Part shown: positions 4,921-7,103 of the stretch, in pieces
How the letters are laid out: each line of letters begins with the position of its first letter
Position numbering within the stretch: position 1 is the first letter of the stretch
Source of the DNA: Nevskiales bacterium
GTDB lineage: Bacteria > Pseudomonadota > Gammaproteobacteria > Nevskiales > Nevskiaceae
Assembly (NCBI GenBank): GCA_028698335.1
Contig: JAQVDP010000001.1
Span: 310,001-374,000, forward strand
Reading direction: 5' to 3'
DNA: 64,000 bases
The notes under the pieces: generated by a model
Seen by the model: the letters and a program-made list of their open reading frames with translations, nothing else
The model's database searches: none
Told to the model about the DNA's origin: nothing
Program-made: the position numbers and the translations under genes

Positions 4921-4977
4921 AAGACTGCGCCGGCGGCCGGACGAAGCTGCCGGACCGGTCGGCTGTGGCTCAGTCTT
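4921..4977. terminator. Long stem-loop between convergent gyrB and LysR gene
   Basis: AAGACTG (4921-4927) pairs with CAGTCTT (4971-4977), and inside are further complementary GC blocks (GGCCGG against CCGGACC). It sits between two convergent genes and overlaps the stop codon of the LysR gene. No T-tract follows on either strand, so it may protect the 3' ends or work with Rho. Confidence 0.4.
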
Positions 4978-5959
4978 CGGCGACGATGGTGTCGGCGGTA
5001 TCGGAATCGTGGACTTCCGCCCAACGCTCGCTGCGTGCCTCGCCGACCAGCCAGTCCCGGAACGCGACGATTGCCGGGTTCCGCTCCGCGGTCTTGCGAT
5101 GGACGGCGAAGTACGAGGTTCCCATACGCAGGCCGAGCGAGAACGGCATCACCAGACGCCCGGCCTCGATGTCGGTCGCCGCGACGATGGGAATGCCGAG
5201 AATCACGCCCATGCCGTCGACCGCCGCTTCCATCGCCGGAACCACGTTGTTGAACGTGATTCCCCGGTTTTTCATGACGTCGCGCACGCCTGCCGCCTTG
5301 AGCCAGCTCGACCATGTCGGCCGGCCCACGTCGAGCGATGCGATATCGCTCTGATAGTGCAGCAGGGTATGGTGCTGGAGGTCGTCCGGTTGCCTGAGGG
5401 CGTATTGACCCTCGAGCAGTCGCGGGCTGCACAGGGGAATCGCGTACGGGCTGAACAGCTTGTGGACGATGTATCCGGGATAGTCGCCGTGTCCCAGGCG
5501 GATCGCGATGTCGACATCCTCGACCACGCGGCCGGACGTCGCTTCGGCGTCCACCGCCTGATCGACCATGCTCTGACGCACCGCGATGCTCAGGTCGATG
5601 TCCGGATACTGCGCAGTGAAACCCGGCAGTTTGCCGACCAGCCACTTGGTCCCCAGCGCGGGCGGCACCGATACCACGACCCGTCCGGCGGATTTGAGCT
5701 GCTGCACCGACAGCACGGCATCCCGCATCAGCGCGAACGCCTCGGTCAACTGCGGTAACAAGGCCTCCCCGGCGGCCGTCAGCTCGATGCGGCGCGGCAG
5801 GCGCTTGAACACCTGCATGCCGAGCTGTTCCTCCAGCGCCTTGATCTGGTGGCTGATCGCGGCCGGCGTCACGTGCAACTCGCGCGCCGCCTTGCCGACA
5901 CTGCAATGGCGTGCGGCGGCTTCGAAGGCACGCAGACTGTTCAGCGGGGGAAGGCGCAT
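4970..5959 (-). CDS. LysR-family transcriptional regulator, GcvA-like
   Basis: The protein starts MRLPPLNSLRAFEAAARHCS and has a winged helix-turn-helix over residues 20-40 (VGKAARELHVTPAAISHQIK). The LPPLNSLRAFE opening with ELHVT-x-AAISHQI is characteristic of the GcvA branch of LysR regulators. The remaining residues form the substrate-binding domain. At 329 residues it is slightly longer than usual. It is divergent from a structured RNA, and a 17-base palindrome lies between the two promoters, as expected for an autoregulated LysR protein. The effector is not predictable; GcvA itself controls glycine cleavage, but no gcv genes are present here. Confidence 0.88.
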   Translation of the reverse strand: MRLPPLNSLRAFEAAARHCSVGKAARELHVTPAAISHQIKALEEQLGMQVFKRLPRRIELTAAGEALLPQLTEAFALMRDAVLSVQQLKSAGRVVVSVPPALGTKWLVGKLPGFTAQYPDIDLSIAVRQSMVDQAVDAEATSGRVVEDVDIAIRLGHGDYPGYIVHKLFSPYAIPLCSPRLLEGQYALRQPDDLQHHTLLHYQSDIASLDVGRPTWSSWLKAAGVRDVMKNRGITFNNVVPAMEAAVDGMGVILGIPIVAATDIEAGRLVMPFSLGLRMGTSYFAVHRKTAERNPAIVAFRDWLVGEARSERWAEVHDSDTADTIVAED

Positions 5960-5974
5960 TGGAACAGTTTAGCT

Positions 5975-6004
5975 TTAATAAACAAACATTGGAAAAGAAT
6001 TCAA
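5975..6004 (-). promoter_or_regulatory. Probable promoter of the LysR gene
   Basis: On the minus strand a -35 TTGAAT (complement of 5999-6004) and a -10 TATTAA (complement of 5975-5980) are separated by 18 bases. This lies 16 bases upstream of the start codon, allowing a very short leader. Confidence 0.45.
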
Positions 6005-6021
6005 TTGTTGCAATGCAACAA
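6005..6021. promoter_or_regulatory. LysR-type operator palindrome between divergent promoters
   Basis: TTGTTGCAATGCAACAA is a perfect inverted repeat with a one-base centre and contains the T-N11-A pattern of LysR boxes. It abuts the -35 of the LysR gene and overlaps the -35 of the rightward promoter, the normal place for a LysR protein to control both directions. Confidence 0.6.
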
Positions 6022-6033
6022 GGCGCGTATAAA
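6005..6033 (+). promoter_or_regulatory. Rightward promoter of the candidate sRNA
   Basis: A -35 TTGTTG (6005-6010) and a -10 TATAAA (6028-6033) are 17 bases apart. Transcription should start near 6040. The -35 is inside the LysR-type palindrome. Confidence 0.55.
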
Positions 6034-6039
6034 TATCAC

Positions 6040-6168
6040 CAACACGAGGCGCCGCAGCATCCCGCCTCGCAACGCGAAGGCCCAACGGCCAGCGTTGTAC
6101 CGGTCTCCTCCAGTCCCGCAAAAACGGGACCGCACTTTGGCCGCCCTCCCCCGGGCGGCTTTTCTTTT
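6040..6168 (+). ncRNA. Candidate structured small RNA, divergent from the LysR gene
   Basis: From the predicted start to a T-tract is about 129 bases with no ATG. Four hairpins follow one another: CGAGGCG (6045-6051) with CGCCTCG (6063-6069); GCAACGC (6069-6075) with GCGTTGT (6092-6098), enclosing GGCC-CAAC-GGCC; GTCCCG (6113-6118) with CGGGAC (6125-6130); and the terminator. The arrangement resembles enterobacterial gcvA/gcvB, where a LysR regulator controls a divergent Hfq-dependent sRNA. No sequence similarity to GcvB is claimed. It could instead be a terminated leader of the SDR gene that starts about 95 bases further on. Confidence 0.55.
6140..6168 (+). terminator. Rho-independent terminator of the candidate sRNA
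   Basis: GCCGCCC (6140-6146) pairs perfectly with GGGCGGC (6153-6159) around a six-base loop and is followed by TTTTCTTTT. It is a strong canonical terminator on the plus strand, located before the SDR gene. The rest of the 5960-6260 gap, about 90 bases to the SDR start, holds only a small CCGGG/CCCGG hairpin. Confidence 0.8.
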
Positions 6169-6260
6169 GTGCGCAATCCGCCGAACCGGGCGATTTCCCG
6201 GGGACGATTGGCGCGCCGGGACCGGTATCCTTGGCGCCCTTGCATTGTCCTGATGACCCG

Positions 6261-7103
6261 ATGAACCCGTCCGTGACCCACGTATTGATCACCGGATGCT
6301 CGACCGGCATTGGTCGCGCCCTGGCATTGGCGTTCCGCGAACGCGGATGCACCGTCTATGCGACGGCCCGGCGTCCGGAACAGCTCGACGCGCTCGCGGC
6401 GCAGGGAATCCGGCCGCTGCGGCTCGATGTCACCGATCCGGCCAGCATCGACGCACTGCGCGCCGGACTGGCCGCCGAGAACATCCCCGTCGACATCCTC
6501 GTCAACAATGCCGGTTACGGCGCCATGGGGCCACTGAGCGAGCTGCCGGAGGACGAACTCCGGCGTCAGTTCGACACCAACGTGATCGGCCTGATCGGCG
6601 TCAGCAATGCCGTGATTCCGATCATGCGGCAGCGACGCAGCGGTTGCATCGTGAACATCGGCAGTGTGTCCGGTGTGCTCGTGACGCCCTTTGCCGGGGC
6701 CTACTGCGCCAGCAAGGCGGCCGTGCATGCGCTCTCCGACGCGATGCGCCTGGAGCTGGCGCCGTTCGGCATCGAGGTGATGACGGTGCAGCCCGGCGCG
6801 ATCCGTTCGGACTTCGGCGCAACGGCCAGTCGCGGTGTCGAAGACCGCGGCCACGACGCCTCGCCCTACGCGCCGATCGCCGACGCGATCGCCGCGCGGG
6901 CCAACGCTTCGCAGCAGCATTCGACGAGCGCGGAAGCCTTTGCGGATCGCCTGTGCCGGGCCGTGCTTGCGGATCGGCGGCCGGCGCAGTTGCGGATCGG
7001 CAGCGGCAGCACGCTGCTGCCCGCGCTGCGCCGCTGGATCCCGCGCAGCCTGCTCGATCGCCTGCTGTCGAAGCGCTTCGGTCTCGACCGTCTGCGCCGC
7101 TGA
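6261..7103 (+). CDS. SDR family NAD(P)-dependent oxidoreductase
   Basis: A classical short-chain dehydrogenase/reductase of 280 residues. The nucleotide-binding motif TGCSTGIG lies near residues 11-18, NNAG near 83-86, and the catalytic Ser (IGSVSG) and YCASK lie near 140-155. The substrate is not predictable from sequence. The ATG at 6261 (MNPSVTHVLITG) is chosen because it puts the Rossmann fold at the N-terminus; an upstream TTG at 6231 would add an unlikely extension. It follows the candidate sRNA terminator, so it may be expressed by readthrough or from a promoter not recognised here. Confidence 0.88.
   Translation: MNPSVTHVLITGCSTGIGRALALAFRERGCTVYATARRPEQLDALAAQGIRPLRLDVTDPASIDALRAGLAAENIPVDILVNNAGYGAMGPLSELPEDELRRQFDTNVIGLIGVSNAVIPIMRQRRSGCIVNIGSVSGVLVTPFAGAYCASKAAVHALSDAMRLELAPFGIEVMTVQPGAIRSDFGATASRGVEDRGHDASPYAPIADAIAARANASQQHSTSAEAFADRLCRAVLADRRPAQLRIGSGSTLLPALRRWIPRSLLDRLLSKRFGLDRLRR

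What the first reader, a model, noticed from the sequence alone, without database searches (positions are those of the whole stretch)
5975..6168. GcvA-like regulator divergent from a structured small RNA, resembling gcvA/gcvB
Between the LysR gene and the next gene there is a shared LysR-type palindrome, a promoter in each direction, and a roughly 129-base region with no start codon, four successive hairpins and a strong terminator. Enterobacterial gcvA-gcvB has this layout: a LysR regulator and a divergent sRNA that controls amino acid transport genes. Sequence homology to GcvB is not evident, so this may be an analogous or very diverged sRNA.
Basis: partly seen in the sequence, partly recalled or inferred. 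Interest (0 to 1): 0.75.

Follow-up and report, generated by a model that had tools for sequence, protein, structure and literature searches.

The report
GcvA-linked anti-ribosome-site small RNA
Next to a glycine-regulator-like gene lies a conserved small RNA gene that probably blocks ribosome-binding sites and appears wired to two sensors, one for amino acids and one for stored carbon, which resembles the well-known E. coli gcvA/gcvB pair but uses an unrelated RNA.

Summary
By comparative evidence the small-RNA gene is real. A CU-rich core (TCTCCTCC), a following hairpin and a terminator recur across the order: 59 of 61 genomes match a covariance model of the core.

Copies fall into two types. 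Type A has phaR, the PHA-storage regulator, in the fetched locus in 54 of 69 copies. Type B, the window's type, was found in exactly the 21 of 61 genomes with a close GcvA-like LysR, even where the two genes are unlinked.

The palindrome 6005-6021 is probably a PhaR-type box (TGC-N3-GCA) over the -35, not the LysR site. The likely LysR site is TTAGCTTTAATAA (5969-5981), centred at -65 of the inferred start; E. coli gcvA-gcvB has TTAGTTTTTTTAA at the same -65. In the 18 type B copies with the TGC box, the two boxes start 40 nt apart in 17 and 39 in one.

GcvB was not found (0 of 61). The RNA resembles the 'double-hairpin'/RF02278 RNAs but scores far below that family's cut-off. I read it as a gcvA-sRNA module with a different RNA and a second, carbon-storage input. 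No expression data or targets were obtained.

The parts
4970..5959 (-). LysR-type regulator, GcvA subfamily; proposed regulator of the sRNA and of itself
   Evidence: NCBIfam PRK11139 GcvA 307 bits (cut-off 288); Pfam HTH_1 and LysR_substrate; 38.6% identity to E. coli GcvA
5969..5981 (+). GcvA-type box TTAG-N5-ATAA (one mismatch to TTAG-N5-CTAA), centre -65 of the inferred sRNA start
   Evidence: E. coli box and PMC5002191 (passages read)
6005..6021 (+). PhaR-type box TTGTTGC-AAT-GCAACAA overlapping the proposed -35
   Evidence: PhbF/PhaR motif TG[N]TGC[N]3GCAA in PMC3206438 (passages read)
6005..6010 (+). proposed -35 TTGTTG
   Evidence: by eye; not found by the consensus scan
6028..6033 (+). 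proposed -10 TATAAA, 17 nt after the -35
   Evidence: by eye
6040..6168 (+). small RNA, inferred primary transcript (129 nt)
   Evidence: conserved 3' part
6045..6097 (+). 5' hairpins 1 and 2, not conserved; perhaps a removable precursor part
   Evidence: fold; not conserved
6097..6169 (+). conserved core, type B (R1 match)
   Evidence: R1 75.5 bits, (this sequence is one of the model's training sequences)
6105..6111 (+). CTCCTCC, proposed anti-Shine-Dalgarno seed
   Evidence: within GTCTCCTCCAG, invariant in the 9 divergent copies; the full 11-mer in 18 of 27 B and 48 of 69 A copies, TCTCCTCC in 100 of 100 model hits classed
6113..6130 (+). conserved hairpin (GTCCCG-CAAAAA-CGGGAC)
6139..6168 (+). 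terminator hairpin and T-run

Best explanation
The interval holds a trans-acting small RNA gene of the 'double-hairpin' kind, transcribed away from a GcvA-like LysR gene. The LysR protein binds TTAG-N5-(C/A)TAA, centred at -65 of the RNA start and 9 nt from its own start codon, and so controls the RNA and itself. A PhaR-type box over the -35 lets the PHA-storage repressor PhaR block the promoter until PHA granules draw it off. The 129-nt transcript may be trimmed to the conserved ~70-nt 3' part, whose CUCCUCC pairs with Shine-Dalgarno sequences and represses translation. Shown by comparison: conserved core, conserved boxes and spacing, co-occurrence with the LysR. Inferred: transcription, which protein binds which box, sign of regulation, processing, Hfq use, targets.
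For: Core model R1 matches 59 of 61 genomes of the order at E <= 0.01. Two hairpins in the MFE of 26 of 26 unique type B and 66 of 67 unique type A cores. Type B in 21 of 21 genomes whose best LysR match has E <= 3.1e-67 and in 0 of the 40 others, with contrasts inside three genera. TGC...GCA[AG]CA within 220 nt upstream in 59/69 A and 18/27 B copies against shuffle means of 0.28 and 0.10; GcvA-type box (<=1 mismatch) in 18/27 B but 2/69 A copies, shuffle means 0.96 and 3.5. Box spacing 40 nt in 17 of 18. A like box at -65 in E. coli gcvA-gcvB. A phaR-like gene in the fetched locus of 54/69 A copies (both PhaR Pfam domains in 3 of 3 scanned). TGYTGCRNYGCARCA: 61 sites in 12 genomes against 4 for the reversed pattern; phasin-like genes next to 5 of 20 fetched sites. 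Precedents read in passages: PhaR represses the sRNA MmgR (PMC12542648, PMC8401924); S17 is trimmed to a short form and represses a target in a reporter, and the CU-rich segments of double-hairpin RNAs are predicted to cover RBSs (PMC11722255, PMC5688073).
Against: No expression data. The consensus scan found no promoter. The window's GcvA box has one mismatch. An exact search for the box gave 25 sites in 25 genomes but 14 for the reversed pattern, and none in 6 of the 21 type B genomes, G000 among them. G005 and G009 keep the GcvA-type box but lack the PhaR-type box. G055, G056 and G060 have PhaR but no box before their type A copy. Five type B copies have the GcvA-type box only 279-380 nt upstream of the core, with a degenerate PhaR-type box in three of them; one copy (G021, L074) has neither within 220 nt. 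In six genomes LysR and RNA are unlinked. None of the six non-RNA box sites fetched from the window's own genome (L241-L246) showed a phasin-like gene. The whole CTCCTCC is unpaired in the MFE of only 18 of 26 B and 40 of 67 A unique cores. Predicted pairing with phasin leaders (-7.6 to -12.9 kcal/mol) is no better than with ordinary genes of the window (-3.6 to -15.3). The co-occurrence cut was chosen after seeing the gap and is not corrected for phylogeny.
Confidence: 0.72

Rival explanations
1. The TGC-N3-GCA palindrome is a second site of the LysR itself and PhaR plays no part.
For: It lies at a fixed distance from the GcvA-type box in type B copies; E. coli GcvA has two inverted repeats, at -65 and -43 of gcvB (PMC5002191, passages).
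Against: The same box precedes 59 of 69 type A copies, 54 of 69 with a phaR-like gene and 0 of 69 with this LysR in the fetched locus, and 5 phasin-like genes. It matches the footprinted PhbF/PhaR motif (PMC3206438, passages). Its sequence is unlike TTAG-N5-CTAA. The two genomes without a detected PhaR (G044, G047) lack it before their type A copies, though three genomes with PhaR lack it too.
Confidence: 0.15
2. The region is a 5' leader with an attenuator of the downstream SDR gene, not a free RNA gene.
For: The SDR gene follows on the same strand at about 6261, and G004 also has an SDR-like start there (by eye).
Against: By eye the other divergent copies have different sequence downstream; in six genomes the type B core lies away from the LysR gene and still ends in a terminator; I saw no antiterminator, but did not search for one.
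Confidence: 0.06
3. A diverged GcvB homologue.
For: Same regulator subfamily, divergent layout, and a box at -65.
Against: RF00022 has no hit in 5950-6300 up to E = 10 and none in 61 genomes with stricter filters, while E. coli rings in the control. The core is CU-rich with two hairpins and has paralogues beside phaR.
Confidence: 0.03
4. Type B units are mainly small-protein genes, with the RNA as a by-product of their 3' ends.
For: In five type B copies (G017, G028, G023, two of G036) a 34-81 aa frame with a hydrophobic stretch lies between the GcvA-type box and the core; G000:C27, G010:C14 and G033:C11 have box, TGC-type box and a small frame without the core.
Against: In the window no ATG or GTG lies between 6040 and the core; the RNA core is what recurs in all type B copies. 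No Pfam family above cut-off for the five peptides scanned.
Confidence: 0.08

Closest known systems
gcvA-gcvB of Escherichia coli
   Same: GcvA-subfamily LysR, divergent small RNA, TTAG-N5-type box centred at -65
   Different: RNA not recognised by the GcvB model; extra PhaR-type box; LysR and RNA in some genomes unlinked or convergent
Betaproteobacterial double-hairpin / 'toxic' sRNAs, Rfam RF02278 (B. cenocepacia ncS03/05/27/62 and bdhR1; B. pertussis S17)
   Same: CUCCUCC followed by two hairpins, the second a terminator; often several copies per genome; passages describe (predicted or reporter-tested) pairing at RBSs and, for S17 and ncS27, a processed short form (PMC5688073, PMC11722255)
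   Different: 19.6 bits here against a cut-off of 50; first hairpin has a different sequence; common descent not shown. Term searches found 'gcva' 0 and 'lysr' 0 times in PMC5688073 and 'lysr' 0 times in PMC11722255 (gcvA not searched there)
MmgR (alpha-r8, RF00519) of Sinorhizobium meliloti
   Same: sRNA repressed by PhaR/AniA through a dyad between -35 and -10, with a second input from nitrogen control (PMC8401924, PMC12542648, passages)
   Different: The other input is NtrC, not GcvA; RF00519 scores 13.5 bits, below its cut-off of 41, on type A copy L089 and is not listed for the window up to E = 10

Membership tests
GcvB (RF00022) | Match to the Rfam covariance model | tested here: not met
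   No hit in 5950-6300 up to E = 10; 0 of 61 genomes, E. coli control positive
gcvA-sRNA regulatory module (layout) | GcvA-subfamily regulator divergent from the RNA | tested here: met
   of the 21 type B genomes divergent in 9, convergent in 6, unlinked in 6
gcvA-sRNA regulatory module (layout) | GcvA-type box centred near -65 | tested here: met
   One mismatch, centre -65 of an inferred start; binding not tested
gcvA-sRNA regulatory module (layout) | Glycine response through GcvA and GcvR | not tested
   GcvR and glycine cleavage genes not looked for
Betaproteobacteria toxic sRNA (RF02278) | Score at or above the gathering threshold (50 bits) | tested here: not met
   19.6 bits for the window, 18.7 bits for type A copy L089
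Double-hairpin anti-RBS sRNAs (works like) | CU-rich segment free to pair, hairpin, terminator hairpin | tested here: met
   Two hairpins in 26/26 B and 66/67 A unique cores; but whole CTCCTCC unpaired in the MFE of only 18/26 B and 40/67 A
Double-hairpin anti-RBS sRNAs (works like) | Represses targets by pairing at RBSs | not testable with these tools
   Duplex energies alone did not single out targets
PhaR-controlled sRNA (MmgR-like control) | PhaR box in the promoter and PhaR in the genome | tested here: met
   Box 6005-6021; PhaR in G000 at C12, beside a second RNA copy
PhaR-controlled sRNA (MmgR-like control) | PhaR binds and represses | not testable with these tools
   Needs EMSA and a phaR deletion

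The most novel reading that the evidence does not exclude
In this order the gcvA-gcvB circuit has been rebuilt: the GcvA-type operator is at the same place as in E. coli, but the RNA is a duplicate of an anti-Shine-Dalgarno RNA that lives beside phaR, and it kept the PhaR operator. One promoter would then combine an amino-acid signal (GcvA-like) and a carbon-storage signal (PhaR) to set a broadly acting translational repressor, in some genera cotranscribed with a small membrane protein.
Probability: 0.45. Interest if true: 0.75.

Novelty: new variant of a known kind. Interest (0 to 1): 0.62.

Why it matters
It would show that a master sRNA slot under a conserved GcvA-type operator can be filled by an unrelated RNA, and it names two candidate regulators for a group of anti-RBS RNAs whose control is largely unknown. 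Each link is a single-box, single-gene test.

Tried and rejected
GcvB homology: rejected. Protein coding: three frames through the region give no Pfam match, and the 5' part varies in length among relatives. SDR leader: not kept among relatives, by eye. LysR reading of 6005-6021: replaced by the PhaR reading after type A copies proved to lie beside phaR. Orthology by position with the class-wide CTCCTCCATCCTCC RNAs: no shared neighbour cluster among the larger ones.

Targets: CTGGAGGAGA-N2-9-ATG gives 56 sites in 20 of 21 genomes, 2 for the reversed pattern, as expected of real Shine-Dalgarno sites; the 30 loci held show mixed genes and were not tested statistically. Duplex energies were uninformative.

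Pair counting on A3 is blurred because types A and B use different first stems forced onto one structure: 57.6% of cells paired, lower than five of six slid controls, while the covariation score (0.192) is above all six. I give it no weight either way.

Rows dropped: three hits of L070 duplicate L148 and were left out, leaving 100 classed copies (69 A, 27 B, 4 unclassed). 17 listed hits (16 at 26.3 bits or less, one of 28.3) were not fetched or classed, so a type B copy among them is not excluded. L063 of G035 holds two near-identical B copies, both counted among the 27. The type labels follow a sequence rule that I wrote after seeing the sequences. In one search the distance nearest to 40 was taken where a copy had more than one TGC match. 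In G017 the LysR beside the RNA is the second-best match, not the best.

Literature: in the listings of searches and the passages read I saw no paper describing this module; only top rows were listed and subscription papers are not in the library. Kimelman 2012, the source of the 'toxic' name, was seen only as a citation.

Full report
What was checked. The window lies at G000:C44:310001-374000. gyrB precedes the LysR gene; dnaN and recF were recognised by eye. None of 200 dinucleotide shuffles folds as well (z -3.58). The consensus scan called no promoter, and the terminator pattern is not rarer than chance in that scan. So the single sequence is suggestive only.

Conservation makes the case. 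LysR homologues were found in 61 of 61 genomes. Upstream of the LysR gene in nine genomes lies GTCTCCTCCAG, followed by a hairpin and a terminator. A covariance model of 12 cores (R1) matched 59 of 61 genomes at E <= 0.01 (its sequences come from 11 of these genomes). I classed 100 copies: 69 type A (AAAGG-type first stem), 27 type B (TCCCG-type), 4 unclassed. TCTCCTCC is in all 100; the full 11-mer in 48 A and 18 B copies. Folded singly, 26 of 26 unique B and 66 of 67 unique A cores give two hairpins; the whole CTCCTCC stays unpaired in 18 and 40 of them. The first stem differs wholly between the types and has paired variants within A (AAAGGC/GCCTTT, AAAGAC/GTCTTT, GAAGGC/GCCTTC), which supports pairing. 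The formal pair count on the mixed alignment was not informative.

Link to the LysR. Type B was found in 21 genomes. These are exactly the 21 whose best LysR match has E <= 3.1e-67; the next genome is at 1.1e-49, and I set the cut in that gap after seeing it. The table is 21/0/0/40, Fisher 8e-17, not corrected for shared ancestry. Contrasts within genera point the same way: g3 (G023 and G033 with both, G012 with neither), g4 (G013 against G024 and G034), g12 (G021 against G032). The RNA is divergent from LysR in 9 genomes and convergent at its 3' end in 6; in 6 (G001, G002, G003, G006, G007, G008) no LysR of this kind lies in the fetched loci of the RNA. The LysR proteins of these genomes form one branch (91/91) among 32 rows, with long-branch warnings; the place of E. 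coli GcvA in that tree is weakly supported.

Two boxes. Within 220 nt upstream, TGC...GCA[AG]CA is present in 59 of 69 A and 18 of 27 B copies; shuffles give means of 0.28 and 0.10 copies. TTAG-N5-CTAA with at most one mismatch is present in 18 of 27 B but 2 of 69 A copies; shuffles give 0.96 and 3.5. In the 18 B copies with a TGC box the two boxes start 40 nt apart in 17 and 39 in one; three of the 18 have two mismatches in the GcvA-type box. An exact search for TTAGNWTTNCTAA in 25 genomes gave 25 sites, against 14 for the reversed pattern; by my reading of coordinates 18 of the 25 lie within 400 nt upstream of a type B RNA on the same strand, and the four genomes without type B had none. Six type B genomes, G000 among them, have no exact site. 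E. coli K-12 has TTAGTTTTTTTAA centred at -65 of the annotated gcvB start; the window's TTAGCTTTAATAA is centred at -65 of the start I infer at 6040. PMC5002191 (passages) gives ATTAG-n5-CTAAT repeats at -65 and -43 for gcvB.

Why PhaR. A phaR-like gene is in the fetched locus of 54 of 69 type A copies; three scanned carry both PhaR Pfam domains (PF07879, PF05233). A PNPase gene lies on the other side of the RNA in L089 (Pfam), and such frames recur, but not every locus has one (L079, by eye). PhaR is found in 59 of 61 genomes. The two without it, G044 and G047, also lack the TGC box before their type A copy, but G055, G056 and G060 have PhaR and no box. TGYTGCRNYGCARCA occurs at 61 sites in 12 genomes, against 4 for the reversed pattern. 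I fetched 20 of these sites; phasin-like genes lie next to 5. Of four of these proteins scanned, two pass the Phasin_2 cut-off, one is below it and one gives no match. None of the six sites fetched from G000 itself showed a phasin-like gene. The motif agrees with the footprinted PhbF motif TG[N]TGC[N]3GCAA (PMC3206438, passages). G005 and G009 keep the GcvA-type box but not the PhaR-type box, so the second input is not universal.

Mechanism proposed. PhaR over the -35 represses; LysR at -65 acts on the RNA and, since the box lies 9 nt from its own start codon, on itself. The sign of LysR action is not known. The CUCCUCC segment is complementary to Shine-Dalgarno sequences. Comparable RNAs are described in passages of PMC5688073 (double-hairpin RNAs with CU-rich segments predicted to cover RBSs; ncS27 overexpression slows growth) and PMC11722255 (S17, long form processed by RNase E to a 67-nt form whose 5' end is the conserved CU-rich part). 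The non-conserved 5' part here would fit such a precursor. No target is established: duplexes with phasin-like leaders were no better than with ordinary genes, and SD-pattern hits were mixed.

Variants. In five type B copies (G017, G028, G023, two of G036) the GcvA-type box lies 279-380 nt upstream of the core, with a small hydrophobic frame of 34-81 aa between; the TGC-type box is degenerate in three of them. G000:C27, G010:C14 and G033:C11 have both boxes and a small frame but no core. A common origin of RNA and small-protein units is possible.

Wider setting. RF02278 run over 274 class genomes gave 132 with E <= 0.05 but only 2 over the cut-off; it also rang below cut-off in four of 14 controls, so weak hits alone mean little. 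Yet 50 of the 65 loci I fetched from that search carry a like CTCCTCC...CATCCTCC motif, 7 of them with a TGC-type box upstream. R1 over 369 class genomes gave 19 with hits, 15 of them outside the order and at most 36.2 bits; one of these (L266) also has a phaR-like gene.

Verdict. A small RNA gene conserved across the order; the GcvA/GcvB analogy is good for regulator and operator and wrong for the RNA's ancestry; the palindrome is better read as a PhaR box. New variant of a known kind.

Noticed in passing
L034-L058 and L153-L192, e.g. L048 1501-1561: A class-wide RNA-like element, CTCCTCCATCCTCCTTTGGTGG plus a GC-rich terminator, in 50 of 65 fetched loci; in L048 it lies upstream of genes for ribosomal proteins L13 and S9. 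It is below the RF02278 cut-off there and might be an unlisted RNA family or a leader.
   Followed up: partly
L003 1490-1830 (G000:C27): A like two-box promoter (39 nt apart) before a 70-aa hydrophobic frame without Pfam match; similar small frames elsewhere.
   Followed up: partly
L089 1-2546 (G000:C12): The type A RNA lies between phaR and pnp, the gene of a ribonuclease.
   Followed up: partly
L124 1515-1583 (G000:C40): A third, more distant RNA copy in the window's genome (36 bits), of neither type.
   Followed up: no
L148 1447-1975 (G001:C22): Three tandem type B copies, each with the TGC-type box; the GcvA-type box is exact in two and has two mismatches in the third.
   Followed up: no
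L259 (G021:C2) near 1495: A second LysR of the same kind in G021 with a GcvA-type box and a TGC-type box in its upstream region.
   Followed up: no
L266 (G171:C4): A type A-like RNA outside the order with a phaR-like gene (53% identity) in the same locus.
   Followed up: no
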